From NCBI GenBank assembly GCA_021904315.1, contig CM038916.1, positions 372,001-436,000 of the forward strand: a DNA stretch of 64,000 nt, read 5' to 3'. The stretch comes from Sphagnum magellanicum. Lineage: Eukaryota; Streptophyta; Sphagnopsida; Sphagnales; Sphagnaceae. Both the position numbers and the translations under genes were made by a program. Under the pieces are notes generated by a model. The model ran no database searches and was not told the DNA's origin. It worked only from the letters and a program-made list of their open reading frames with translations. Of the stretch, positions 3,061-34,759 are shown in pieces; within the stretch, counting starts at the first letter, position 1, and each line of letters begins with the position of its first letter.

Positions 3061-3118
3061 TGTTTTTATGGTAGTACTATTTCGGGCACAAATTGTTATG
3101 GTGCAACCATTTGTCGTG

Positions 3119-3297
3119 ACATGTAGTGTCATGATGTATGATGTTGTAAAGGTTTAAATTCGTAGTAAACTTTACTAAACAAAAAGACTAAAGCCAATCA
3201 AAGGTATAAACTAATCAACCAAAAAGAGATGCATGCACATATATATATATATATACAATGCACAAGAGGAGGCTGAGATGAAATTTTCATGTATATT
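3119..3297 (-). repeat. Direct duplication copy 1 flanking the 3' LTR segment of element A
   Basis: This segment matches 3612-3787 closely. Shared blocks include 'cgtagtaaac..tactaaac', 'aaaaagactaaagcca', 'caaaggtataaactaatcaa' and 'tacaatgcacaag'. One copy lies on each side of the LTR-like block 3300-3603. They may be the U3 parts of two LTR copies, one truncated. Confidence 0.7.
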
Positions 3298-3299
3298 AA

Positions 3300-3603
3300 A
3301 TGAATGAAAGAATTGAATTGCAAAAAAAGAAAAACATGTAATGTATGTAGACGGTGGCCATGCAATGGCCGCCGTGAGCATCTAAAAATCCTATCTGATT
3401 ATGGAGGAAATTTTCTTGATAAAAGAATTTTAGAAAAAATAAAGGAAAAAAGAAGGGCTTGGCCTTTTATACAACCGCCAACAAACCGAAACCCTAAATA
3501 CCTAATAATGTATGGTCACCTAAGACCATACATTAACCTTAAAAGTGCGCATGGGCATGCCCGTAACTTGCCATCATGTACGAGGCCATGTACGAGCATG
3601 ACA
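3300..3603 (-). repeat. 3' LTR segment of element A
   Basis: Matches 12970-13278 over its whole length, by eye well over 80 percent identical, with most differences being C/T or G/A transitions. In element sense it begins TGTCATGCTCGTACATGG and ends near CTTTCATTCA, so it has TG...CA ends. The polypurine tract at 3784-3796 lies about 180 bases upstream rather than directly against this block, so the true LTR may be longer and include 3604-3783. The 115-codon plus-strand frame here is an LTR by-product, not a gene. Confidence 0.75.
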
Positions 3604-3611
3604 GCTATCAT

Positions 3612-3787
3612 GACATGTAGTGTCGTGACATATGTTGTCGTAAGGGTGTAAATCCGTAGTAAACTCTACTAAACAAAAAGACTAAAGCCATTCAAAGGTA
3701 TAAACTAATCAACAAGAAGAGATGCACGCACACACATATATATACAATGCACAAGAAAAGGCTAAGATGAAATTCTTATGTATCTCC
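3612..3787 (-). repeat. Direct duplication copy 2, between polypurine tract and LTR segment
   Basis: Second copy of the 3119-3297 sequence. In element sense it begins right after the purine-rich tract TTTGGGGGGAGA, which is where the U3 of a 3' LTR should start. No matching copy is seen beyond 13278 at the 5' end, so either the 5' LTR lost it or this is a separate duplication. Confidence 0.6.
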
Positions 3788-3796
3788 CCCCAAACC
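3784..3796 (-). other. Polypurine tract of element A
   Basis: In element sense the sequence reads GTTTGGGGGGAG. A purine run just downstream of the pol stop codons is the usual priming site for plus-strand DNA synthesis in LTR elements. Confidence 0.6.
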
Positions 3797-3839
3797 TGAG
3801 TCAAGAAAAGTGTGGCATGGTCTAAGTAGGAATCAAGGT

Positions 3840-5240
3840 GATGTAGGAGAACATGATGAATAGTACCAATTGTTGGTGGGAACTTGAGTGTGCTCTGCCT
3901 TGAGGCAGAAGAGATGGTATCCATCATTACAATTATCGCAAAGCTACATCTGATCAGCATCGTCTGTCTTCTGACATACCTGACATGGATAATCAAGTGA
4001 AGGAATCCAAATTGACGTGATGATAGTAGGATCCAAGTTCGGCAGGTGACAAGGCGCATAATTTTTGGAATGATCTTGAATTGTGCGTCCGTCAACTCCT
4101 TGCAACTCCAACACACCTGAAGGCCCGATCACCTTAATTCTCAAGATAGTGCGACCGAAAGAAGTGTCTAAAGTATCATTGGGTTGCCGCTGGAGATACA
4201 CAAAATCACCAACATCAAATTGTCTCACCTTAGGTTTATAACTGCCACCTCGTGTGTGTGCATACCATAAAGTGTCTCGATGTTGTGCAATGGACAGGTT
4301 CTCCATGGCCATGGGCATAACCCTCTTGAATAGAGCAGCCCTTTTTGCAATGACCCGAGCCCAAATGGCTGGGGAATCCAAGTCCACAACTTGGTCCATT
4401 TGAGCAGCAATGGAAGAGGGTGGAATGGGATGTCTCCCAAAAAGTAATAAGTAAGGAGAGAAATGAAACAAAAAGGCGTGTGTGGACATCCTGTAACCCA
4501 TGGCAATGTAAGGGAGGGCTAGGTCCCAATCCTCTTTGTTCTTAATGAGGCAAATCTTTCGAAGTCCTTCTTGCACGTTTAAACCATCCTCTCTGCAAGG
4601 CCATCAGCTTGGGGATGATCTCTTGAAATCTAACAATGGTCAATGAAAGCATGGTCAAGTAGGTCTTGGAATTCTCCCATGAATTATAATCCTTGATTAA
4701 TAAGGCACTCAGCGCAAGCCCCAAACCTACTTAGAACCTGTTGTAAAAAAACCTGGCTGGTGCTGTGTGATGACTTGTCCGGTAGCATAACAAGCTCAAC
4801 CCACTTTGAAAAATGTTCAATCATAATCATGATGTAAACATTACCCCTGGAGGTTTGTGATAATTCTCCAGCTAAATCACATGACTAATGATAGAACATG
4901 CCCTGAATAGGGAGTGGAGAAAGCGTGAGCTGTCGAGAGGAGAAATAAGTTCTCACTCTATCACATTATTCACATTTAATAATGATGTCTCGGACTTGAG
5001 CATACATACCTCTCCAATGGTAATGAAGAGCGAAAAGGCTATAAATACACTTAACTCCAAAGTGTCTAAGCTCCGAGTGTACCTTTTGAATAAGACCAGG
5101 GCATTCATGTGGTGGTGGAACCATTCTGTCACCTTGTGGTAAGCATTGGACGAAGTGATTGTCCCTCCATGAGTATCGTTTGGATCGTTGTTATATGTGA
5201 TCTCGCTGACTTGATGTAATTTGGGGAAGGTATTCCCCAT
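3840..5240 (-). pseudogene. Element A integrase with C-terminal PHD finger (end of pol)
   Basis: The N-terminal zinc-binding part (about 5100-4960) shows histidines and a CxxC pair, ending IIIKCE-stop-CD. The catalytic core has a first Asp in SCDLAGEL, a second site reading INQGL-stop-F where TDQGxEF is usual, and the Glu in HPQADGLAERMVQT. A C-terminal part (4260-4000) has GDFVYLQRQPN and RIKVIGPSGVLELQG, like the GPY/F-type tail of Ty3 integrases. The frame then enters a PHD finger at 3985-3851: CQVC, LCDNC, GYHLFC and WYYSSC, with a conserved Trp two residues before the last zinc pair. One zinc Cys reads Tyr (TAT for TGT) and a TAG precedes LCDNC; both fit C-to-T decay. No chromodomain is seen. 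Translation ends with a TGA a few codons after the PHD finger. Two frames are needed to read the whole domain. Confidence 0.85.
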
Positions 5241-6891
5241 GTTGAAGAAACCTCAAAGTGTCCAAGTCCTCCCATATATCCATAATGGGATGTTCAACCA
5301 GGTTACATTGTAATAGTGCAAGATAACTAAATGCATCATATACATGTACTGCTAGAATTTGGTCAAAATCTTGCCTAATTTCTGAAAAATCTTTAGAGGT
5401 AGTGAGGGGTCTTCGCGACATGGTATCTGCATTCTGATGTGTAATATTAAGTCGGTGAATAACCTTGAACTCATACTCTTGAAGTATAAGTGCCCAACGA
5501 GCTAATTTACCAATAAACTTATCGTTGGTCATCAACCATTTGATAGGTTGGTGGTCGATATACAAAGTGAAATTGGTGCCATAAAGATAGAGCCTGAAAT
5601 GTATGACAGCCCATACAACAACAAGGCACTCCCCCTTGTATGAAGAGTAGTTACTCTCAGCCTTGTTGTTACTTCGGGATGCATAGGCGATAACATATTC
5701 CTTGCCTTCCTCATTAAATTGGCCAAGAATAGCTCCAATACCAAGAGCACTCCAGTTAGTGTGTAGAATGAAGACCTTGTTGAAATCAGGTCTTCTCATA
5801 ATGGGGAATTCTGAAAGCTTTTCCTTGAGTGTGTTGAAAGCTTCATGAGCCTCATCACTCCATGTCTAAGCAACATCCTTCTTTAACAATGCATAGAGAG
5901 GATGAGTAATAATACTTAAGTCTTGGACATAAATTCTGTAATAATTACATAGTCCGATGAAGCTCCTCAACGTGTGAACATCAATAGGATTGGGCATCTC
6001 CAAAATGGCTACTACTTTGGCCCAATGAGCCATAATACATTTGGCAAAATCTTGTGTCTAAGGTAGACTACTGAGGTGACAACAAACCCACACTTTCTAG
6101 GATGGATCTTCATATTGACTTTGTGGAGCCTCTTGAATAACTCCTCGAGATGAGCCAAGTGCTGCAGGAGTCCCTTGTTATACACTAGGACGTCATCTAT
6201 GTAGCACTTCAAGAATCTGCCCCTTCGAAAACTTGGTCCATGATTTATTGAAACAAGACAGGTGCATTCTTCAATCCAAAAGGCATCACAAGCCATTCCC
6301 ACAACTTGTTGCTTCCATGGAATGTCGTTTTCTTGCGTTCCTTCGCAGCAAGCACAATCTGGTTGAAGCCTTGCTTCAGATCCACAATTGTGAAGATGTT
6401 TGAATCTCCAATGCTATCAAACAATTCTTCAGGGATGGGCATGGGGTACTTGTCCTGAGGTGTAACTAGGTTCAAAGGCCTATAATCCCTGCACATCCTT
6501 TTCTCAGTCCATAATCTAACTGAATCCTTATTTGCTAGCATTCCTATAGCGGCTACGAAATCAGAACTTGATGCTTGAATGAGACCACCTCATGGAGTTC
6601 TTTACATCCTTCATCTACCAATTCCCACTCATGTTTGCTCAACCTATGCTTCCTCCGATAGACAGGTGTCTCATCTATAAGGTCTATAGAGAACTGCATG
6701 GTCTTACACCTACTTAAGTCTTTCATTGAAAATGCAAACATATTCTCGTACTTAATTAGCAAGTATGTGACATGGTCTCTCTCTTTCTTGGTGAGTTGGT
6801 TCCCCATAACGAAAGGGTAGTTGGAAACACATGGAATGGAATTGGAAAATGTGTTTGAAGAACCTGGTGTATTGGGTTCTCCACTATCCAA
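5191..6891 (-). pseudogene. Element A reverse transcriptase and RNase H
   Basis: The RT is typical of Ty3/gypsy: an entry segment with KYENMFAFS (the 'F..vFA' region), PVYRRKHRLS, then MCRDYRPLNLVT with PIPEELFDSI, FTIVDLKQGFNQI (first catalytic Asp) and LVMPFGLKNAP. FLKCYIDDVLVYN holds the YIDD catalytic pair. The RNase H follows from about 5799 with FILHTNWSALGIGAILGQ (the first catalytic Asp appears as Asn), the YSSYKGECLVVVWA region (catalytic Glu), FTLYIDHQPIKWLM (Asp) and NADTMSR. Frames change near 6585, 6300-6250 and around 5800, and a few stops occur, so the gene is broken. The first part (6891-6553) is in the same frame as the upstream methyltransferase, which implies one fused Pol polyprotein. 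Confidence 0.9.
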
Positions 6892-7119
6892 CTACGCAAA
6901 TTCGTAGAAGATTGTAATTGTTTCTTCAGAAGTTGATGTACCTCCAAGTGTATTAGACACAACTTGAGTCAAATTACATGGTACCTCCTCCCCCCCAACA
7001 TTAAGAGTGAAATGTAGAGTGTTGAAGATAGGTATGTGTACTTGGTCGGGGTGCCATGTGATCGCATCGTCAGAACTGTAAGCTGATTGAATAAGTGTTA
7101 ATGTTGTGTACATTTGAAA

Positions 7120-8106
7120 GAGTACACAGGTTACCAACAACCATGTAAGGGAATTTAGGTCCATGCCTCTCCCCAATAGAGCATTACGCTCTAATTTAGT
7201 CACCTTAGTGTGACTAGTAATGCCAGCTTGGAACCCCAAAGCCCTTTCTCTTTCTTCTAGGCTTGGTTCATCCCAAGTGGCTAAAGCATGACAATACACC
7301 AGGCCTGGTCCATCTCCTTGAAAGGCATGTGCTCCTGGGAAGGAGACAAAGGTGGGCCAAGCACCTCTTGGTTTTCCTATTATGTTTGCAGGAAACCAAG
7401 GAGGTTTATCTTGCCTTATAACTGGTTGGCAAGAGTTCTGATCATCCAATATGTGAAAAACCTGCAGGTTGGGGTCTCTGATGGTGTATCTCAGAGCCAA
7501 TTATAGAACTAAGAGTGGTGCCAGGTTAGTCCACCAGTTGCGCAACCAGTGTGCATAGGAACCGCATTGTGTTGCATCAAGTAAGAGCGGCTCTCCAAGG
7601 TAATGCTTAATCAGTGTGTAATGCTCCTGGACTTTCTCCCTCTGGCCAAGCTGAGAAGGGGTGTTCTCAATTACATAACCAAGCGTAAGAGAAGTGGATT
7701 GAGCTCAAGTGATCAATTGTATCATGTTCGTGAAGAGACTAGATCTTGCGTCACTCAAGCCTTCTTTAAATCTAGCCATTGAAAATCCTTGACACTCGCA
7801 ACCTGAAATGATAAGGTCGACGGGGCCAAGTAATTCCATATGTTTCTTTTTAATTAATTGTATGTTAGAGGGAAAAATTGTGAAACTAGCCTTCCATGCG
7901 GTGGTTACAAACTGTTATGGAAATCTGGTTGTGAATTCCCTCATTCTCGATGCCGCCACTTGCCTTACAATAGGATCAATGTCTATGTAGAAATACCTCC
8001 AAACCACCATCTCTAACTATAGTAGGGTTTCGAGACCTGTACCAATACCACCAAAAAGCTCTAGTAATGTAATCCCTTCCTTAGGTGTGTCCAGGTGATT
8101 AGCTGA
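7120..8106 (-). pseudogene. C5 cytosine DNA methyltransferase domain inside element A
   Basis: From 8106 downward one frame stays open for about 400 codons except for four stops (TAG 8019-8017, TAA 7917-7915, TGA 7707-7705, TAA 7503-7501). Canonical motifs occur in the usual order. Motif I is LLELFGGIGTG (SAM binding). Next comes FYIDIDP. Motif IV is VDLIISGCECQGFSMAR, with the catalytic Cys at 7794-7792. Motif VI is YVIENT. Motif VIII is GSYAHWLRNWWTNL. Motifs IX-X are EERERALGFQAGIT and ERNALLGRG. The spacing and the AH-x-xR-xxW-xNL and LLGR signatures look closest to Dnmt3-type enzymes. The order is not rearranged as in plant DRM. The usual Pro before the catalytic Cys is Glu, and a motif VIII Arg position is Trp (TGG, possibly from CGG). 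The frame continues into the RT entry segment at 6891. Such enzymes transfer a methyl group from SAM to cytosine C5; here the likely substrate would be element or host DNA. This copy cannot be functional as it stands. Confidence 0.9.
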
Positions 8107-8219
8107 CGAAGTAATGGTTTAATCGGTTCGCCATGGCTCTGCATGCTTTCAAAACTAGACAAAGCTTTGACCAAGGGCTTGTGAGCTACTTTGAACCTCT
8201 GTAAAACCTCTGGTCCGTG

Positions 8220-9235
8220 TTAAATGTCACTAGGAACCGCCCTCAAGCTTTCAATAGCTTGAGCATAAACTATCTCCTCTTCATCTCCTTCTATCCATTC
8301 GTGGTTAGCTTGTTGGATGTAGGAAATGGTGTGTGCTTCCTTGAGCATACAATGGTGAGCCATAGGTCTATGGTTCCCATGTAAATCAAGGGGTATGTAT
8401 CCCAGGTGGTGGCCATCAATCTCCCAATCCACTCGGTAGTACGCATGCTCGAACCAGTTGTTAATTGTGAAACCTGGTGGAAACAAGGCTTCTTGCCAAT
8501 GAACACATCATAACTGGTGGGATTGGTTATTAAACATCTGACCTGTAAGCAAAGCTCCTGATCTGTACCTTCATTGAAGTTAAATGCAATCAAATCTAAG
8601 CTTTCGCCAAGTACCTCTTCTATGCTCCCACTAGCGGTGCGAATCTGCCACATAGATTTTCGTAGTTTGGAGTCAAACATGCCCATCTTTTTGGCGAATT
8701 GAACTCCAAGAATCACTGGTTGGGAACCTGTATCAAGAAGTACCACTCTGGGTGTATGTCCTCCCACTTGGATTGTTGATCCAGTATTCTTGACAATGGC
8801 AACTTCGGTGGCGATGGAAGTTCTTTCACTAGGCACCACTTTCAGAAATGAGTGAGAAACCTTGTGGAGAGAATGGTTATCCACAACACTTTTGTTGAGT
8901 AACAAATCCACAAGTGAGGTGTTTTTAATTCCCTTCTGATATGTGAATGTAGAATTAGAGGTAGGAAAGCCCACTAGTTTAACCATGCTAGAACTAGTGA
9001 CCAGATTACGAACACCATCTGCAACACATGAACCAATCGAATGTCTCTCCAAAGTGTTGGATGGGACCTTTGTAGCATGTGGATCATGGATTGGTAGAAG
9101 ACTTGATGTAGTGTTTAGGGTATCTTCTAGTATTACAATTATGTCCTTGGTGCTTAGCTTCAAATCTTGAAAACCAAACAATGGTGTACTCACAAGCTTT
9201 TGTGCCACTTCATGCATTTGAAGTTGGCATTCCAT
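8220..9235 (-). pseudogene. Element A aspartic protease region
   Basis: The retropepsin core is RVVLLDTGSQPVILGVQFAKKMGM, read in two parts: the catalytic DTG at about 8739-8731 followed by the 'flap' stretch QIRTASGSIEEVLGE and CLITNPTSYDVFIG, with the typical second hydrophobic strand. Upstream about 130 codons (from 9235) carry no recognised domain. A frameshift near 8490 moves the frame to FPPGFTINNWFEHAYYRVDW, and another near 8100 leads into the methyltransferase. Retropepsins cut the Gag-Pol polyprotein into its mature parts. Confidence 0.85.
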
Positions 9236-9459
9236 AAGCTGATAAGTGGAAAATTGTGTGTTTTCCTGATATACATGTACTCTTGGGACATAGGAATTTG
9301 ATGCCCTAATAGCTTATGGTGTAGTAGTCTCCTCCCCCCTCGCCAACAAGGTGCGTTCTTCTTCTGTGTTAAGAGGACGAAAAGATTGTGGCATGACTGT
9401 TCGAGCTCCTCTAGCCCTGGTAATAGGATTTGAACCAGATGCGAGTCCATCAGTCTGAA

Positions 9460-12048
9460 TTACCTACCTAGTGGCAGAAACTTTGGGTGCCACATTAGCC
9501 TCTTGTGCCACGACATAAGAAGGGCAAAAAAAAGTAACAAATTCTGGTCTGAGATTAAAATTCTATGCAGTGGAGAGAACATACTCCCTAACCATGGCAT
9601 CTTGTGGGAGGCCATAAAACGACCTAAGAGGTCCTTCCCATGATCCTGAACCTTGTACATGTTAGGCATGATTAGCTGGTTGGGAGGACTTGCCTTTTAG
9701 ATTAGCAAGTTGGGCCCTCAATGATTTGAATTCATTTTGTAGAATCTAAACTTGAATTACATGGGCTTGAAGCACCTCCTTCTTGTTAGCATTGTGCTCC
9801 TTCTTCTTAGCATTCTTATTGGAATTACCCTTGGTGGGCAAAGCCTGAGTGCAGGGCTGATGTCGCAACTCCACTTTGAAGGAAGTGTGAGGTCACCATT
9901 CACACTCCCGAAAATGGGACTTGAGAGTTCTCTAGGATTCTCGAAAATTCAGAACGCGATTGCAGGGGTCAAAACGCCTTGCAATGAAGTGTTCATTATA
10001 CCGTTGGAAAATTCTTGAAGTTTAGATGTCCAAAATGGCCTCGCATGAGCCATTTGGACATTTGTAGCACAAGTTATGGTTGAATGAAGGGCCGAGAGCC
10101 AAACTAGTAGTTTGACTCCCGACCACTAAAAGTCGGGAATCGACCCGATCCCGGTGTGTGCAGGTAAAGTGTGACACACCATTGGAAAGCTCTCAAGGAG
10201 GGCTACAAGTTTGCTTGAAACCTTGTCCCAATCGGAGGTCGGAGCGAGAAGTTATGAACGCCCAAAGTCTCGAGAGTCCAAATCGGGACAGTTTTGGGAC
10301 TCCACTTTGGGAGTCCCGAAAAAAAGTGCCATTCGGATGTAAGTGCGGCAGAGAGGCACAAAGAATACTATATGGGGGAAGGTGGTGGCTTCCCTCGAGT
10401 CCGGGTCGTGGTGAGTCAAGTGAGTCCAGAGTTGCTTGTGGCTTGTCCTAGCACCAAGAGTCTTCCAGAATGAGAACTAAGCAACTTGTTAGTTGGTTTG
10501 ATGCAGGTTCGAGTAATTAAATAGTTTGTCCCTCTTCCTAGTCTAATGTTGGAGCTTTTAGCACGCCCTTCTTACCCCCTTTAGTGTTGGAAGCTGGGAC
10601 CGTGCTCGAGTCCCTCGCAATTCCGCAACTTGAGTAACTTAACCTCAACTTGGGGCTAACTAGAGACTTGGGAGCGCGTCAGTTGAGGTGCCTTGGCTTT
10701 TGGTTGAGGGACAGCAGAAGATGCTAGCAAATTTTGTCGTGGTAATCGGAGTTGCTTCCGTTCCAGGACCTTAACAAAACAAATAACTTCTTGATGTCCC
10801 TCTTTCCCACAATAATCACGAAAGAGATCCTCGGAAGGAATGTTGCACTCATTAGCTTTATGGGCAGGATTACCACAGTAGTTGCAAGAAGGTAGGATGG
10901 GTGTAACTGAGTACATCGCTTTAGCCCTTGAAGAAAAATGTGATGATCTAGTTAGCGTAGCTAGTGTAAGCTGAGGCCTTGAATGTGATGGAGGCCTCAT
11001 GGTGTGCATGAGCTAATTCCAGCTTTTCGAAAATGTTGTACACATCCAACAAAGTGTACGAGTCTCCAAATTCTACAAAAATCTATTGCAAAACCTACGC
11101 ATGGAGTGTTGGAGTACCTTTCAACAAACGAAGATACCAGTGGGCAGCTTCCAAGTCTGTGATGCTCTGGGTATCCTCTTTGAGTTTGAGAAGCCTCCTA
11201 TAGAGCATCTTGAGGGTTTCATCCTTCTATCGAGAGAAGGTGGCAAGCTGTAGAATTTTTTCAGAACTTTTGACTGGAAATTCCAGCTCAAGAACTTGAA
11301 AGAATTCCCCCACTGGATCAGCACAAGTTGGCGCATCGGTGGTGGGAGGAATGTTTGCGGTAGCAGCAATGAGTTGTTGAGGAGAAAGGTTTACTAAGGT
11401 ACGTACTGGGTCTAGATTATTGGGCATAGTCCCATGATGTGCAATTGCAACTTGCAATGCAACTTGAGAGGCGGTGACGATGGCTATGGCATAAGCTGGA
11501 TTAGGAATTTGGGTGAAACCCAAAATCCTTGTAGAATGTTGCTCGTAGACATCCAATGCCTCATAGTGCACATAACGGGCCAATTGTTTGAATGCAAACG
11601 CCTCAATGTAATTAGCCCCATACTTGAGTTTCAATTCACAAACCACAGTTAACAAAGTTGCCTTGAACTCCCTCAAAGAAATGGTACTTCGCCTTTCACT
11701 GAACTTCTCAATTCTCCTAGAGGAATTGCTGACCTCCATGGTGTATATGGGTGTAGAGGTTATGGTTTGGAGTGGAATATACGGTGATGGTGTGAAAGCA
11801 GGTGCAACAGCAGGTGTACCCCATTGATTAACCCCTCCAAATGGACTCTAATGTACTGTTGATGTAGTGTAACCTGAACCTGAATTCCTGGTAGGAGTTG
11901 TATCAGATGACGGTGGTGTTGTATATGCTTGATGGTACCATCGTGAAAATCATGAGCTTAAAGAAATCGACTCAAAGGATTGCGTGTTACTTCGTAGCTG
12001 ATACATGGGCTCTAGCTGAGCGGTAGTGTTTTCATCATCCAAGGACAT
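9460..12048 (-). pseudogene. Element A gag with zinc knuckles
   Basis: A start codon at 12048-12046 opens MSLDDENTTAQLEPMYQ. The frame runs through two stops (TGA, TAG) into MEVSNSSRRIEKFSERRS and on to 11227, a retrotransposon gag core. After a frame change it continues as MLYRRLLKLKEDTQSITDL..HWYLRLLKGTP. A first zinc knuckle, CNYCGNPAHKANEC (C-x2-C-x4-H-x4-C), lies near 10880-10840; a second near 10810-10770 reads RDYCGKEGHQEVIC and has lost its first Cys. Gag then continues as PQVEVKLLK, is interrupted by the insertion at 9851-10628, and resumes as LPTKGNSNKNAKKKEHNANKK. Gag forms the virus-like particle; the knuckles bind element RNA. Confidence 0.8.
9851..10628. mobile_element. GC-richer insertion inside element A gag
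   Basis: The gag reading frame stops making sense here, base composition changes (many CG dinucleotides, 'gagtcccg' phrases) and gag resumes on the other side. The two flanks on the plus strand read cctgagt (9844-9850) and cttgagt (10629-10635), a probable 7-base target-site duplication with one C/T difference. Inside is a hairpin, TCCCGAC...GTCGGGA, at about 10112-10134. No protein domain is recognised and no terminal inverted repeats are clear. It could be a solo LTR or a small non-autonomous element. Confidence 0.55.
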
Positions 12049-12969
12049 GGTGTTGTCCCATGCCCCAAAATTTTGTGATAATACATAGCACTAACTACAA
12101 AATTTTAACACAATGTACGGTTTGAAGAATATAGTGCGTCGTTGGGAATGACCTGCAATAGACAAACATCTCACGGAGGTTAAACGAACGTCCAACAAAG
12201 GTTGGACAAAGGTCGGACGGAAGTCAAACAAACATCGGATGGAAAGGTAGGACAACAAAATGGTAGGACACATGACAATAGAATGGTAGGACGTATGACG
12301 TAAGATGACAAACTACAGGACGACAAGGCGTAGGACGAAAGTTGGATGGACATCGGACAGAAGTCCGACAAAAGTCCAACAAATGTCAAATGAACTGAGG
12401 TTAGCCGCCGCCACTACGATGGCGACGTTGCAGTGATGGCGACACTGCGGCAATGGCAACATTGCGGCACTACAGCTCACAATGTTGCGCTGCAATGCTG
12501 TAGCGATGGTAACGTTGTAGTGATGGCGACACTACGGTGCTACAATTCACAACGTTGGGTTGTAGCACACGACGCTACAAACTCGTGTCACGGGAATGCT
12601 GCAAGCTCGCATTGCGACAACAACGTTGCTTTGCAGCGATGGCAAGTGGTGCTACGCTGTTCTGCAGCAATGGTGAACGCCGCTGCCTAAATTTTTGTTT
12701 GTTTTTACTCGATAACCACCACAAGAGGGCGCGTTTCTACACGTGAAAGAGAGAGAGAATGAAAGAGAAAAAGAGGGGGAGGTTTGAAACTTGTTCAAGG
12801 ATCCCAACTTTGTTAGTTGGCAGGAATGTAATAATGCAAGCTCCCTCCGGTAACAACGCAAGTTCCTTCCAACAATAGCAACATTAAGAACAAAAACTCA
12901 ATAATTCAAAGGCAAAAGAAATTTGCCACTTTCAACATTAAGCAACAAATAGTAGAGTTTTTCTAGAAT
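12049..12969 (-). repeat. Element A leader with degenerate tandem repeats, partly CpG-rich
   Basis: Between the 5' LTR segment and gag. From about 12170 to 12390 short units of the kind 'gtcggac' and 'ggtaggacaa' repeat loosely. From about 12400 to 12690 units like 'gatggcgacgttgcagt', 'gatggcgacactgcggc' and 'aatggcaacattgcggc' repeat and are rich in CG dinucleotides, unlike the CpG-poor DNA around. No coding potential is seen. The leader of an LTR element holds packaging and priming signals. Confidence 0.6.
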
Positions 12970-13278
12970 TGAATGAAAGAAATAATTGAATTGCAAAGAA
13001 AGAAGAACATGTAATGTATGTAGATAGTGGCTGTGCAATGGCCATCGTGAGCATCTAGAAATCCTATCTGATTACGGAAGAAATTATCCTGACAAAGGAA
13101 TTCTAGAAAAACTAAAAAAGAAAATAGGGGCTTGGCCTTTTATACAACAACCAACAAACTGAAACCCTAAGTACCTAAAATAATGTATAGTCACCTAAGA
13201 CCGTATATTAACTATAAAAACGCACATGGGCATGCCCGTAACTGACCATCATGTATGAGGCCATGTACGGGCATGACA
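12970..13278 (-). repeat. 5' LTR segment of element A
   Basis: Pairs with 3300-3603. In element sense it begins TGTCATGCCCGTACATGG and ends CTTTCATTCA. Its flank beyond 13278 does not match the duplication seen beside the 3' copy. No standard tRNA-complementary primer site (for example TGGTATCAGAGC) directly follows it. Confidence 0.75.
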
Positions 13279-14880
13279 CATTTCTAATTGCATTCTAAGG
13301 CCTTTTGTAATCACTCTTGACATATATTAATAGGTTCAAATATTAGTTGTTTCAGAATCTATTTGATCAACAGGTTTTTTGTATTTCAAAAACCAATTAG
13401 GATTTCTTCAAAAACAGCATAAGTAATCAAAAAGTTTTTAAACATAACTAATATTCAACAACTAAAACATTATCAAAAAACAAACAAGATTCTAAAAAAA
13501 CTATTTCAAATATCATAAAAATAATTTTAGAAAATTGTATGGCAAATTTCTACCTAGAAATTTTGTCCAAAACCAAAGATTGCAAATGCAAATGTTCACA
13601 ATTCCAATCCATTGCATGGTCACCAAATGTTAAGGGTGTTTTCTATTCCTTCAAATTAACAAAATTATTTTCTACTTCACAAAATTTGACTTGCATACAA
13701 ACATTAACATGTGTGTTCTTATTCAAATTTAAAAACAAGAAATAGAAACATAAAAATGTTTATTTACAAATACATAAATTACAAAAGGAAATCTAAAATG
13801 GTTCCAAAAATTTAAATTAAAAAAACTAAATTAAATTAAACTATTTAATTTTCGTCAAATCCTACTACTTATACCAAAACATGGTGTTGTTTTAAATTAA
13901 ACAATCACTAGCTGGAATAGCAATTAAGTGATTCAAAATTAAATTGAAGTAGTTATTGGCCACAAGTTGAACAATGGACCTATTCTGTCCATACACCGAT
14001 TATTTTAACAGACCTATTATTAGTTGATTTAACATACCTATTATCAATTAACTTAACAAACCGGTTACTTGTTGCCTATTAATAACTTAACAATTTTCAA
14101 AATGATAATGTTTCATTGGTTATTTGTTGGTAATAACTAGTTACTATTCATAATTAGTGAAATTTTGGGTTAACAAAGCAACAAAAACGTGTGCACAACT
14201 AAAAATAAAGATGATGCAACGAAAGAAAAAAATATTCAAAACAAAAAGATGATGCAAATGATAACAAAAATGAACAAACCTTGGTAGCTTCCAAATATAA
14301 ATTCACCTACATCATGGGATCTACTTTTGCAAAAAAAAAAAAAAAAAAACCATGCAATCCATTTTTAGTGAAAGTAATGCATGATATTTTTTGCTTTCAC
14401 TATTATAATTCACGATTTTTTTACTTGAATTTCTAGTAAAAAAAACCCAAAAATGACAGGTTAAAAAAAATTAGCTTATTAATCTAAACAAGTCGATTTT
14501 GACCTACCAACGTGATCATGTAGTCAATTTGGACCATGTCATTTTTATTGACAAAATGACAAACTATTTGATTAAGTAAATAGTGAACCATTTAACTAAA
14601 TCAAATATATACCTAAATTAAAATAATTTTTTGGACTATTATTTTAAAAATTAATAAGTAGATAGGTAGATGTTAACTTAAACTAACCTAGCCTAACCTA
14701 CCTAACCTAACCTCATCAAATTACCTTAGTTTAACCTACTTACTTCAGCCCTTTAAGCATGCACATAGGTTGTAAGTATAAAAAATTGAACCCCAAACTT
14801 CCACAATGATAATTTAAGTCCTTACCAATGGACTACACCATTAAAAGTGATCAACTTTTGTCAAGTTTTTATTCACATGT
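13279..14880. other. AT-rich intergenic DNA
   Basis: No gene recognised. Phrases around 13970-14110 such as 'aaaccggttacttgttgcc' and 'ttaacttaaca' resemble family-B LTR wording, so an old LTR relic is possible but I cannot delimit it. A 20-base A-run lies near 14330-14350. Confidence 0.4.
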
Positions 14881-15430
14881 TTATTTCACATCATTAAACA
14901 TAGTGGTTAAACTTAGGTGATAATTAATGGCTAAAATTAGGTTAAACATAATGGTTAAATCAATTGGTTAAACATGGTGGTTAAATTTAGTAGCCAACTT
15001 AATGCTTAATTTAAATGTTTAATGTAATCGTTAAACATAATGGTTAAACCTAGTTGATAAATTTCATGGTTAAACTTTGGTTAAACCTAGTGGTTAAATC
15101 TAATGCCTAAACATAATGACAAAACCTTGGCTAAACATAATGACTAAACTTTGGTTAAACATAATGGCCAAACATAGGCTAAACTTAATTGGCTAAATTT
15201 AATGGTTAAATATAATGATTAAAACTTGGTTTAGAATAGAGGTTAAACACAAGCTAAATTTAATGGTTAAACATAATGGCTAAACCTTAGTTAAATTTAG
15301 TGGGTAAATATAAACATAACAATTAAACCTAGTGGCTATACCTAGTGATTAAATTCAAGTTAAACCTAACAATTCAAATTTGGGTAAATCTAATGGTTAA
15401 ATTTAATGGCTACACCTAATGACTACACCC
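14880..15430. repeat. Degenerate short tandem repeat of 'taatggttaaac' type
   Basis: The phrase (c)ataatggttaaac with variants (cctagtggttaaat, cataatggctaaac) recurs dozens of times at a roughly 12-20 base step. It is followed by gtaggtaggt-like tracts to about 15610. No coding content. Confidence 0.6.
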
Positions 15431-15680
15431 AGTGGTTAAACTTATGTAGGTAAGTGGGTGGATAGGTAGGTAGGTTATATGAAGGTGAAATATAAGTAAG
15501 TATGTAAATACACAAATGAGAAGGTAAATAGGTGAGTAGGTAGGTAAGTAGTAGGTGTGTGGGTAATAAGTGGTAAATAGATGGATGAATAGTTAGGAGG
15601 TAGATACATAAAGTAATAAGCCATGTCACATCTAATTAAAAATCACTGGCCATCTTGATTAAATGTTCCACTAAACAAAA

Positions 15681-15989
15681 AACCATTGATCATTTTGATT
15701 AAAGATCATTGGCCATATTGACTAAATGTTCAACTTGATCAAAGACCATTACTCATTTTGATTAAAGATCATTGGCCATATTGACTAAATGTTCAACTTG
15801 ATCAAAGACCATTGCTCATTTTGATTAAAGATCATTGGCCATATTGACTAAATGTTCAACTTGATCAAAGACCATTGCTCATTTTAATTAAAGATCATTG
15901 GCCATATTGACTAAATGTTCAACTTGATCAAAGACCATTGCTCATTTTGATTAAAAATCATTGGCCATATTGACTAAATGTTCAACTTG
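15681..15989. repeat. 63-bp tandem repeat, about five copies
   Basis: Units starting ttgatcaaagaccattgctc lie at 15735, 15798, 15861 and 15924, exactly 63 bases apart, with a partial copy before (from 15681). Copies differ at only a few positions, so the array is recent or homogenised. Confidence 0.9.
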
Positions 15990-16471
15990 ACTATATGTAT
16001 TTAGTGAAATAAACTACCATAATTGAGTTGATCAATTAAAAAATACATGTGTTATTCAAGCCCCTAACCTTTAATCAAAATGGACATGTCCATTATTATA
16101 AATTAATCAACTTGAACCTCTTAAAAAATCATGATTTGTAATAGTGTTTTGGTGGAATAATGCAAACCATGGGATGATAAAATCCAAAACATATCCGACG
16201 ATGAAAACATGATGACAAATAAATGTTCTTGAATCTTATGATTTCAAAAAAAACAAACAACCTTTTACATAGGTGAAGGGCTTGCGGATGGGACCTTCCA
16301 AATTTTTAACCCCAACCTTTGGCCTCTTAGCCTTAGGTGGGATCTCAAATTCAGAAGGTCCCATATGCAGGCTCTTTTTCTATACATAAAGCCCAACTAT
16401 AAAACATTTTAAATTTGAAATGTTCCTCTGATCAATCTCTTAGTTGAGGAACTTTCATGCTTATAAGGTTC

Positions 16472-32279: not shown

Positions 32280-33131
32280 CCTATTTATGCAACAGTGGTT
32301 ATCAATCATCAGATCGCCATTATACAAGTCGAGGTTGGTAAGAACTTCATTGATGATGTGTTGATTGATGGAGGATCTGGAATAAACATCATTACTAAGA
32401 ACCTGGAAATATAATTAGGTTTAGGGTTTAATCTAACACCTTATCTAACACCTTATAATCTATGTATGGCAAATCAAACCATAGCCAAACCATTTGGTAT
32501 TATCAAGGATTTGAAGATATTTGTTCATGGAATTCCCTATATAATTACATTTACTATTATTAACAAAAATGTACTAGATTATAGTTGTTCGATGTTATTA
32601 GGACACCCATGGTTGAGAGATGCAAAAGTATCCCATTATTGCGGAATTAATATTGTTACCATACAAGGAACCAATATAATAAGAACCATACTTGTTACAA
32701 ATAAACTTGTTGTTCAAACTAAAAGACCATAAATTTTAGTTTGTTATGATTTCCATTATGGAATATCTAATGACGAAGAGGATGTGATGTTTGCCACAAA
32801 GTTAAACATGTTTTCAATAGGAACCATAACAGTACCCACTCATACTAAACATGTTCCTAAATCAGTCCACATACCAAATATTGTCATAGTAGGACTGGTC
32901 CCAAAACAACTTGTTAAACCAATAGGTGTATTAGCCATAAAATTAGTTATACCACCTTACACTATCAAACAACACTTACTTGAAAATTTCTTCCATCCAA
33001 AGGTTGGAGAGATGATTGTTGATGAGGCACCTACTCAAGAGCAAGTACATGATTTAACCATAGTAGGTTGGATAGTTACTAAGGAAGAGCAATTAACCAA
33101 AGTCAATTTGGGTACCAAGGAGAATGTGTAA
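32280..33131 (+). pseudogene. Element B aspartic protease
   Basis: VEVGKNFIDDVLIDGGSGINIIT (two parts: the catalytic site is DGGS, replacing DTG/DSG) at about 32328-32398, followed by the flap region NQTIAKPFGIIKDLKIFVHG and YSCSMLLGHPWLRDAKV with its conserved LLG-PW core. The DGG(S/A) form is found in a subset of plant gypsy-like elements. A linker to 33131 leads to RT. Confidence 0.8.
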
Positions 33132-34570
33132 CAAATGAAAGTGTATTTTACACTTGAATCGGTTGTCATAGATCAACTGATTAAGCTTTTAAAAGAGTTC
33201 AAAAATGTTTTTGCCTAGACATACAAAGACCTTAAGGGTATTCCACCAAAGATTGCTCAACACCAAATTGAACTAGATACCACAATACCACTTGCTCATC
33301 AAGCAAGGTACTGATTAGATCCCAATTATGCTATTATTGTCAAGCAAGATATAAACAAGTTACTTGTTGGTTTTATTAAACCGGTTGAAAAAATAACTTG
33401 GCTATCTCCAATAGTGGTTGTTCCTAAGAAAAATGGGAAGTTGACAGTTTGTGTTGATTTTAGGAAACTCAATGCAACAACAAAGAAGGACCATTACCCA
33501 TTGCCTTTCACGGATGAAGTCATCAACATAGTTGTTGGGCATGAAGTTTATACCTTTCTAGACATGTTTTCAAGATATCATCAAATATTAATGGCACCCA
33601 AAAACCAACACAAAACCGCATGTGTGACAAATTGTGGGGCTTTTGTGTGGGTTGTGATGCCATTTGGTGTCAAAAATGGACTGCCCACCTATTAGAAGGT
33701 AGTAACTAAAGCTTTTCATGAATACATTGATGTATTCATGAAGATTTTTCTTGATGACTTCATAGTTTTTGATGACATGCCAACTCACCTTGAAAAGCTA
33801 AAAAAATGTTTCCTTAAGTGTAAAGAATTTGGTATTAATTTGAACCTAACAAGTGTGCATTCATGGTGTTTTTAGGAACCATCTTAGGTTTCATAGTGTC
33901 CAAAGAGGGCAAAGTCATGGATCCTAAAAATGTTGAAGCCTTAGTAAACATGTTAGTACCTATTACCCGCCAAGACATCCAAGTTTTTAATGAAATGGCC
34001 CAGTTTTATAGGTGTTTCATTAAAAACTTTGTTTCAATCATGTCACCTATCACTAAATTGCTCAAAAAGTTTAAAGTCTTTGAATGGATTGAAAAATACC
34101 AAAATGTTTGTGAGGAGATTAAGAATTAGTATATACAAGCCCTTATTTTGATCAATCCAAATTGGGAGCTTAAGTTTCATGTTCATACAGATGCATCTTA
34201 GTTAACAAAAGGAACCATAATAGCACAAAACTTGACTAGTAAGTTTGATCAACTAGTTATGTATGCCTCCAGATTGCTAAATTTAGCTAAGAGAAACTAT
34301 ACTACTACTGATAGGGAAACCTTAGCTATGGTCTATGCCTTGCACAAATTCAAACATTACTTATTGGGTAACCGGTTTGTATTTTATGTTGACCACATGG
34401 CCTTAATGTACCTAATTAATAAGCCACAATTTTCTACCATAATAACTAAGTGGTTACTATTATTATTGGAGTGTGACTTCAAAATTGTTTATAAGCTTGG
34501 TAGATCCCATTTGATGGCAAATGCATTAAGTAGATTGCCTAATCATGTAGAACCGGTTATATCTTGATCA
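33132..34570 (+). pseudogene. Element B reverse transcriptase and RNase H
   Basis: RT motifs in order: KNVFA-stop-TYKDLKGIPP, SPIVVVPKKNGKLTVCVDFR, YTFLDMFSRYHQI (first Asp), WVVMPFGVKNG, and VFMKIFLDDFIVF with the FLDD catalytic pair. The thumb region FLGTILGFIVSKEGK and QDIQVFNEMAQFYRCFIKNF follow. RNase H: LKFHVHTDAS (Asp), YTTTDRETLAMVYAL (Glu), FVFYVDHMALMYL (Asp) and MANALSRLPN. Stops at 33217 (TAG for Trp), 33310 (TGA for Arg), 33694 and 34199 break the frame, and a short frame change occurs near 33850. Confidence 0.9.
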
Positions 34571-34759
34571 AACCACTAATGCTCACCTATTCACTTTACA
34601 ACAAAAGTGGTTACAAAATATTTATGATAACATGTCAAAGGGAATGATGCTAGAAAGATTTACAACTTCATAAAGACAATATTTAACTTAGAGAACTAAA
34701 CCATTTGTGTTACAAAATGGGATATTTTATAGATTTGGACAAGACAATAAATTTTGTTG

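What the first reader, a model, noticed from the sequence alone, without database searches (positions are those of the whole stretch)
7120..8106. A DNA cytosine methyltransferase encoded inside a Ty3/gypsy retrotransposon
Between the protease (DTG) and reverse transcriptase (YIDD) of element A, one frame carries the C5-methyltransferase motifs I, IV, VI, VIII, IX and X in canonical order. It stays in frame into the RT entry segment at 6891-6553, so it is part of Pol and not a neighbouring gene. From memory, retrotransposons with captured methyltransferases are described in dinoflagellates and charophyte algae; a copy in a genome with land-plant-like genes would extend that. An element that writes methylation could hide itself from host damage, tame its own expression, or act on host chromatin.
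Basis: partly seen in the sequence, partly recalled or inferred. Interest (0 to 1): 0.96.

Follow-up and report, generated by a model that had tools for sequence, protein, structure and literature searches.

The report
Moss retrotransposon carrying a DNA methyltransferase
A large family of jumping genes in a peat moss carries, inside its own polyprotein, an enzyme of the kind hosts use to switch jumping genes off by methylating DNA, together with an unusual end structure, which extends a previously known algal oddity to land plants.

Summary
Confirmed. Window 7099-8118 (minus strand) encodes a Dnmt3-type cytosine methyltransferase (MT) between protease and reverse transcriptase of a Ty3/gypsy element (3112-13278). 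This copy is dead: four stops in MT. It holds about 120 MT loci of this family or more, plus a second family. All 20 copies examined (picked for open frames) have PR-MT-RT-RH-IN-PHD; 12 of 12 loci picked through RT, the window's included, carry MT sequence. Ka/Ks of MT (0.26) is like that of RT, RH and IN and below the neighbouring linker (0.50). Calypogeia (liverwort) and Closterium proteins share MT upstream of RT; green-algal elements carry a related MT between RH and IN. MT, RT and IN trees separate the two layouts. The repeats are not ordinary LTRs: they are split (A-internal-B-A-B), as reported for KnitGypsy-Dnmt3 of Klebsormidium. Yet 13 of 13 readable copies have 4-bp target duplications and TG...CA ends, so insertion was integrase-type. 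The B|A joint is a near-palindrome kept while its surroundings diverged. Most likely the MT methylates the element's own cDNA before insertion; this is inferred. Known kind; I found no report of it in a land plant.

The parts
13279..13282 (-). 5' copy of the 4-bp target-site duplication (AATG in element sense)
   Evidence: read by eye from the printed flanks
12968..13278 (-). repeat A1: left end of the element, starts TGTCATG, carries TATAAAA at 13138-13144
   Evidence: 86% to A2 over 311 nt; TATA offset
13099..13113 (-). predicted 5' end of the RNA (AGTTTTTCTAGAATT), 31 nt after the TATA start, exact inverted repeat of 12956-12970
   Evidence: present as 13-16 nt in 13 of 14 family A copies tested; self-priming is inferred
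12956..12970 (-). primer-binding region at the A1/internal border (AATTCTAGAAAAACT)
10656..11739 (-). Gag region, broken into ORFs; CCHC zinc knuckle in 10656-11009 (weak, below Pfam cut-off)
8291..9235 (-). ORF with aspartyl protease (DTG)
   Evidence: PF13975 4.7e-4, PF13650 8e-4, both below cut-offs; PR of sister copies
7099..8118 (-). Dnmt3-type cytosine methyltransferase domain, 4 stops in this copy
   Evidence: fold of the relative P0001
5900..6891 (-). reverse transcriptase, in several frames (limits approximate)
   Evidence: L048
5191..5799 (-). RNase H
   Evidence: PF17917 1.8e-34
3990..5300 (-). DDE integrase with zinc-binding region, frameshifted (limits approximate); second Asp lost: INQG here, DQG in 18 of 20 fetched copies, NQG in 2
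3851..3985 (-). PHD finger at the C-terminus of Pol
   Evidence: PF00628 5.1e-9, 36.5 bits against 24; in 20 of 20 copies
3784..3791 (-). polypurine tract (GGGGGGAG) directly before B1
3606..3783 (-). repeat B1
   Evidence: 88.6% to B2
3604..3605 (-). GC spacer of the near-palindromic B|A joint (decayed here; CACGACA-GC-TGTCATG in sister copies)
   Evidence: family B; contig L060
3295..3603 (-). repeat A2
3112..3294 (-). repeat B2: right end of the element, ends CACGACA
3108..3111 (-). 3' copy of the target-site duplication

Best explanation
The window holds an old, dead copy of a large Sphagnum family of split-repeat Ty3/gypsy retrotransposons. Their Pol is PR-MT-RT-RH-IN-PHD. The MT is a Dnmt3-type enzyme that has been an inherited, selected part of the element since before its moss and liverwort lineages separated, or since a transfer between them. 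Shown: identity, position, copy number, purifying selection, split repeats, 4-bp target duplications. Inferred: Pol is packaged with the RNA; reverse transcription is self-primed at A and plus-strand-primed at the tract before B; the MT then methylates the new cDNA so that it arrives in the genome looking like ordinary methylated host DNA; the PHD finger steers the integrase to a histone state. Identity and position I hold at about 0.97; cDNA methylation as the main function at about 0.5.
For: MT match. 121 MT matches in the genome at about 120 loci, nearly all full length, 11 without a stop apart from one partial match; 120 of 1048 candidates were scored. Fixed domain order in 20 of 20 and MT in 12 of 12 RT-picked loci. 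Ka/Ks of MT 0.26 beside RT 0.29, RH 0.26, IN 0.28, linker 0.50 (bootstrap over copies: MT 0.22-0.31, linker 0.43-0.64). A set picked by RT, 11 loci of which two repeat the first set, gives MT 0.35 (9 loci), RT 0.36, linker 0.58. Catalytic Cys and motif VI Glu invariant in an alignment of 32 relatives. Model of a relative: pLDDT mostly 85-96 in the domain, mean 69 for the whole chain, pTM 0.66; it fits DNMT3A/3B catalytic-domain chains with target-normalised TM near 0.8, query-normalised about 0.4 because of disordered tails. MT, RT and IN trees agree on the deep split. One copy has no difference between A1 and A2 or B1 and B2, so insertion was recent. Two DIRS-borne Dnmt3 domains of Symbiodinium methylate CG in yeast (PMC5890265).
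Against: The KnitGypsy-Dnmt3 domain showed no activity in yeast; the authors call this inconclusive (PMC5890265). Glu instead of Pro before the catalytic Cys may alter or abolish catalysis. The element is less CpG-poor than its flanks (0.48 against 0.26 and 0.24), so self-methylation leaves no visible extra depletion. Transitions at CG and CHG between repeat copies fit host methylation equally well. Predicted self-priming was not seen in family B: L009 showed neither a TATAAA nor an inverted repeat of 9 nt or more at that border. No methylation or expression data for Sphagnum were at hand.
Confidence: 0.55

Rival explanations
1. The MT acts on the host rather than on the element: it methylates chromatin around insertion sites or genome-wide, with the PHD finger as guide.
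For: PHD finger conserved at the integrase end, lowest Ka/Ks of the domains measured (0.11). Dnmt3-type fold.
Against: Most MT copies listed are broken and no expression was measured. Klebsormidium, with similar elements, has a land-plant-like methylome (PMC5890265).
Confidence: 0.2
2. The domain no longer methylates; it serves as a nucleic-acid-binding or multimerising module, as DNMT3L does for DNMT3A (recalled).
For: Motif IV is Glu-Cys in 93 of the 149 relatives in which it was found.
Against: The catalytic Cys and motif VI Glu are invariant in 32 rows, and 52 of 149, as well as the three Sphagnum family B copies, keep Pro-Cys.
Confidence: 0.15
3. The MT modifies RNA (the element's transcript or a tRNA), not DNA.
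For: Position next to RT would give access to the RNA. The authors of PMC5890265 suggest RNA for the LINE-borne enzymes.
Against: Profile and fold are nearest DNMT3A/B (2.4e-21); DNMT2, the tRNA enzyme, is far weaker (4e-5).
Confidence: 0.07
4. A one-off host gene fragment that fell into one element.
For: Only what a single window shows.
Against: About 120 loci or more, 12 of 12 RT-picked loci, relatives in Calypogeia, Closterium and green algae.
Confidence: 0.01

Closest known systems
KnitGypsy-Dnmt3 of Klebsormidium nitens (de Mendoza et al. 2018, PMC5890265; parts 1-4 of 7 and passages read)
   Same: Dnmt3-type MT inside Pol of a Gypsy element with gypsy domains; repeats arranged as in DIRS elements; purifying selection on the MT.
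   Different: Host is a moss. Position of the MT within Pol is not stated in the text I read (the figure is not held). PHD is not mentioned in the main text (0 hits).
SymbioDIRS-Dnmt3 and SymbioLINE-Dnmt of Symbiodinium (same paper)
   Same: MT captured by retrotransposons, conserved by selection.
   Different: DIRS (tyrosine recombinase) and LINE elements, not DDE-integrase Ty3/gypsy.
Ty3/gypsy Pol proteins with RT-RH-MT-IN-PHD (among P0100-P0215; named host Haematococcus lacustris for P0184, P0186; most have no named host)
   Same: Same MT subfamily, same C-terminal PHD, related RT and IN.
   Different: MT sits between RH and IN instead of PR and RT; each layout forms one side of a branch in MT, RT and IN trees if the DNMT3A outgroup is left uncounted.
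PAT-like DIRS elements with split direct repeats (recalled; listing only)
   Same: A-internal-B-A-B repeats.
   Different: Those use a tyrosine recombinase and make no target duplication (recalled); these elements have an integrase, and 4-bp duplications in 13 of 13 readable copies.
Tf1/sushi-type self-priming elements (recalled)
   Same: 5' end of the RNA complementary to the primer site.
   Different: Repeats are split here; self-priming is predicted from sequence only, in family A only.

Membership tests
Ty3/gypsy (Metaviridae) | Pol order PR-RT-RH-IN with integrase after RNase H | tested here: met
   20 of 20 copies, with the MT inserted between PR and RT
Ty3/gypsy (Metaviridae) | DDE integrase insertion: TG...CA ends and short target duplication | tested here: met
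   4-bp duplication in 13 of 13 copies with both ends in hand: window and 11 others of family A, one of family B; read by eye from printed flanks
Ty3/gypsy (Metaviridae) | complete LTR at each end | tested here: not met
   left end has A only; right end has B-A-B or B
Dnmt3 methyltransferases | non-rearranged motif order with Dnmt3 as nearest relatives | tested here: met
   profile scores DNMT3A 2.4e-21, DRM 6e-12, HhaI 4e-8, DNMT2 4e-5; fold. No tree with all DNMT classes was built
Dnmt3 methyltransferases | Pro-Cys catalytic motif IV | tested here: not met
   17 of 17 family A copies have Glu-Cys; 3 of 3 family B copies have Pro-Cys
Dnmt3 methyltransferases | de novo DNA methylation activity | not testable with these tools
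   no bench data
KnitGypsy-Dnmt3 | Dnmt3-type domain in a gypsy Pol with DIRS-like split repeats | tested here: met
   against the text
KnitGypsy-Dnmt3 | sequence kinship to the Klebsormidium elements | not tested
   no protein named Klebsormidium was in the lists (one search shows 120 of 270)
DIRS (tyrosine recombinase) | tyrosine recombinase instead of DDE integrase | tested here: not met
   integrase in 20 of 20; the precomputed Pfam lists of relatives show PF00665 and no PF00589. No dedicated search for a recombinase was made
chromoviruses | chromodomain at the integrase C-terminus | tested here: not met
   a PHD finger is there instead; no chromodomain in the window pieces scanned

The most novel reading that the evidence does not exclude
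These are retrotransposons whose DDE integrase works not on the ends of linear cDNA but on a pre-formed, near-palindromic joint (CACGACA-GC-TGTCATG) where the two element ends lie back to back, probably on circular DNA. Sequence signals place the cDNA ends at the start of B (polypurine tract) and the end of A (primer site), yet the copies with both ends in hand begin at A and end at B. A one-repeat circle opened at the joint would give A-internal-B (7 of 18 family A copies), a two-repeat circle A-internal-B-A-B (10 of 18 have B followed by A, 8 of them with B2 seen; one unclear). Such a circle would also be the natural substrate for the MT. Against the simple form: of 32 exact A|B joints in the genome, 17 have an MT and one more an RT at the place expected for A-internal-B-A-B, 14 have neither listed nearby, and none shows the mirror layout that free choice between two joints would give. 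So the choice must be directed, or the A-internal-B copies arise by B x B recombination.
Probability: 0.35. Interest if true: 0.88.

Novelty: new member of a known kind. Interest (0 to 1): 0.72.

Why it matters
A review states that transposons encoding DNA methylases are absent from land plants such as tracheophytes, and builds an argument on their loss (PMC6338049, passages). A peat moss with over a hundred MT loci, one copy with identical repeats, and two families shared with a liverwort contradicts that for land plants as a whole; it does not touch tracheophytes. The 2018 paper treats the Klebsormidium capture as independent to that lineage; a class found in green algae, Closterium, a liverwort and a moss suggests an older one, though the Klebsormidium sequences themselves could not be placed. 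Sphagnum has a chromosome-scale assembly (31 contigs) and can be grown in culture (recalled), so whether an element gains by writing the host's own silencing mark becomes testable. The split repeats with integrase-type target duplications pose a separate question about how such an element regenerates its ends.

Tried and rejected
Rejected: a chance ORF or host gene fragment. Rejected: ordinary LTR element; I first took 3295-3603/12968-13278 as LTRs and found the split layout only on comparing ends. Rejected: DRM origin (motif order, scores). Led nowhere: IMG/VR with a window MT piece (none of 3 stretches confirmed) and with alignment A2 (2 weak matches, L042 and L043; no other domain of this element found in the fetched stretches). 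Bacterial genomes gave 3 weak matches and one full element on a contig binned as cyanobacterium, taken as misbinned alga. A host Dnmt3 of Sphagnum was looked for among PF00145 hits: L002, L005, L029 look like DRM and L031 like MET1 (my reading of motifs); none looked like Dnmt3, but only 123 of 387 candidates were scored, so absence is not shown. CpG depletion gave no support for self-methylation. The PHD Ks of 0.31 against about 0.06-0.10 in the other stretches is unexplained. The copy number of family B was not obtained (unanswered, not repeated). The MT tree is rooted by one very long outgroup branch; with it counted, PR-MT-RT is not one clade but needs 2 changes, while RH-MT-IN needs 1. 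Which layout is ancestral is open. The algal rows of the trees were picked by me (33; one search drops P0091, P0113 and P0184 and adds L044; RT 25 rows, IN 22). Ka/Ks pairs are not independent and NG86 ignores CpG effects; three family B copies had slipped into the RH set, and without them RH is still 0.26 (16 copies). The 20 copies are 20 of the 33 rows (my count) with no stop and an open frame of 280 codons or more, three of the 33 being host genes by my reading. One search used only part of the rows; I repeated it with all 124 and 121, and 75 of the 150 rows: same 17 and 0. The repeat distances use fixed-length cuts, so those of copies with a shorter B are slightly too high.

Full report
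What is there. The minus strand of window 3112-13278 is one retroelement. Read with X at stops, 8298-6895 matches DNA_methylase (E 8.4e-7, above the curated cut-off) and DNMT3A structures (4.7e-8). A protease ORF lies upstream, RT and RNase H (1.8e-34) downstream, then an integrase and a PHD finger (5.1e-9). This copy is dead: 4 stops in the MT, a changed residue near the catalytic Cys, and an integrase Asp lost that 18 of 20 fetched copies keep.

Which genome. Contigs C15 and C1 of the held assembly measure 18169471 and 32361881 bases. One search gives the same lengths for contigs of two proteins named Sphagnum magellanicum (CY35). The assembly is 439 Mb. I therefore take the host to be S. 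magellanicum; no tool names it.

A family, not an accident. A Pfam search of the genome gave 124 matches, with 123 of 387 candidates scored; at least five of these rows are host genes by my reading of loci L002, L005, L029 and L031. The window MT as query gave 121 matches, 120 of 1048 candidates scored, nearly all covering the whole domain at 72-87% identity apart from the window itself; 12 rows show no stop, one of them a partial match of an interrupted copy. I fetched 20 copies, chosen for open frames. All 20 have PR-MT-RT-RH-IN-PHD: 17 of the window's family (A) and 3 of a second family (B, about 38% MT identity to A). To avoid choosing by MT I searched with the RT entry segment: 150 matches, the best 12 cut out, the window's own first; 12 of 12 have MT sequence directly upstream, 10 near full length and 2 truncated.

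Selection. Among the 17 family A copies the median Ka/Ks is MT 0.26, RT 0.29, IN 0.28, PHD 0.11, RH 0.26 (16 copies) and 0.71 for the protease stretch (16 copies), and 0.50 for the linker between MT and RT. Bootstrapping over copies separates MT (0.22-0.31) from the linker (0.43-0.64). The 11 RT-picked loci other than the window's own, two of which repeat copies of the first set, give MT 0.35 (9 loci), RT 0.36, RH 0.37, linker 0.58. The MT is kept about as strictly as RT, RH and IN.

Relatives. One search listed 82 proteins, among them Sphagnum magellanicum and S. balticum, the liverwort Calypogeia fissa and Closterium. One search listed 22 and one search listed the best 120 of 270. The 116 new proteins all contain the MT by a profile I built from eight family members, and 91 show RT-RH-MT-IN-PHD in full. 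Few have a named host; Haematococcus lacustris is one. Two ids look like transcriptome entries by their names (P0104, P0129), which suggests expression. So two layouts exist: PR-MT-RT in Sphagnum, with PR-MT in a Calypogeia protein and MT-RT-RH in a Closterium protein, and RH-MT-IN in the algal set. In the MT tree (outgroup not counted), the RT tree and the IN tree the two layouts are separated by one branch with support 98 or more; with DNMT3A counted as root the PR-MT-RT rows are not one clade, but that branch is very long. Families A and B of Sphagnum each pair with a Calypogeia protein (support 100). Both lineages therefore predate the split of mosses and liverworts, or crossed between them.

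Fold and active site. A model of the relative P0001 has pLDDT mostly 85-96 over the domain, 69 on average with its disordered tails, and its best matches are DNMT3A and DNMT3B (target-normalised TM near 0.8 for catalytic-domain chains). Cys of motif IV and Glu of motif VI are invariant in 32 rows. The residue before the Cys is Glu in 93 and Pro in 52 of the 149 relatives in which the motif was found, of 210; Pro is the textbook residue (recalled). Whether the Glu form is active is open.

Split repeats. A1 (12968-13278) recurs as A2 (3295-3603), but the right end reads B1-A2-B2. Of 18 family A copies including the window, 10 have B followed by A on the right (8 with B2 seen; in L018 the stretch ends at the joint; in L026 B2 was not found), 7 have a single B, and 1 a truncated B. 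Of the three family B copies, L009 shows the full A-internal-B-A-B, L011 B-A-B on the right, L010 a single B. The legend of Fig. 4 in PMC5890265 says the same repeat structure holds for KnitGypsy-Dnmt3. New here: in 13 of 13 copies with both ends in hand the element is flanked by 4 matching bases and ends in TGTCATG...CACGACA or close variants (read by eye). That is integrase-type insertion, in both the A-internal-B-A-B and the A-internal-B form.

How it may replicate. A G-run stands directly before B1 in 18 of 18 family A copies and before none of the 8 B2 copies printed. In 13 of 14 copies 13-16 nt at the border of A1 and the internal region are an inverted repeat of a stretch near the expected RNA start; in 12 of these it lies 31-34 nt after TATAAAA, and one lacks an exact TATAAAA. 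Family B's L009 shows neither TATAAA nor such a repeat. In family A these are the marks of plus-strand priming at B and of self-priming at the end of A (recalled models). A standard round would then give B-A-internal-B-A. Integrated copies begin at A and end at B, that is, at the B|A joint inside that repeat. The joint (CACGACA-GC-TGTC) is the same in families A and B and in a 9285-bp contig binned as a cyanobacterium (L044, L060; PR-MT-RT-RH-IN-PHD, GC 55%), while the repeats themselves do not match each other by blastn (for B, for the contig). I read this as the integrase's site. The contig's ends are identical over 127 nt, which would fit a circle but also an assembly loop through A. Of 32 exact A|B joints in the genome (about 3 expected from the reversed-pattern control), 17 have an MT and one an RT at the distance expected for A-internal-B-A-B, none shows the mirror layout, and 14 have neither listed nearby.

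Age. The window's A copies differ by K2P 0.15 and its B copies by 0.13; the other measured copies range from 0 to 0.07. At a recalled, untested rate of 1e-8 per site per year the window copy would be some 6-8 million years old. Over the eight family A copies measured, 111 of 136 differences are transitions; 28 fall at CG and 22 at CHG, as expected for methylated cytosines. This fits methylation of the copies in the genome, and does not say by whom.

Known or new. The kind is known from Klebsormidium. In ten searches I saw no listed paper that reports such elements in a land plant; each shows at most 20 papers, and apart from PMC5890265 (parts read), PMC6338049 and PMC6317226 (passages) I judged by title and start of abstract. 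One search, with exact phrases, returned only PMC5890265. PMC6338049 states absence from land plants such as tracheophytes. PMC6317226, a survey of plant LTR elements, has no hit for methyltransferase, PHD or Sphagnum in its main text. Subscription papers and preprints are mostly not in that library.

Noticed in passing
window 32601-34700 (+): A second, ordinary-looking Ty3/gypsy pol remnant (RT with FLDD, RNase H at 34157-34540, 34% to the first element's RNase H), seen.
   Followed up: no
window 14867-16053: Short imperfect repeats near 14867-15443 and a 63-bp tandem array at 15572-16053 next to the element's 5' side.
   Followed up: no
L012-L028, PHD region: Synonymous divergence of the PHD finger (0.31) is about three to five times that of the other Pol stretches, with a few sequence groups: possible exchange of 3' ends between subfamilies.
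   Followed up: partly
L044 / L060 (CADCWO010000201.1): A contig binned as Synechococcales cyanobacterium carries an MT-bearing Ty3/gypsy element and has identical 127-nt ends; probably from an alga of the soil crust.
   Followed up: partly
L009-L011: A second Sphagnum family (B) with canonical Pro-Cys motif; L009 has identical B repeats and A repeats 98.6% alike over the first 287 nt.
   Followed up: partly
P0151: A protein named as from a Minisyncoccia bacterium is a full RT-RH-MT-IN-PHD Pol, evidently misbinned.
   Followed up: no
one search list: Stops inside dead MT copies seem to be most often TAG, as expected if CAG (a CHG site) decays after methylation; not counted formally.
   Followed up: no
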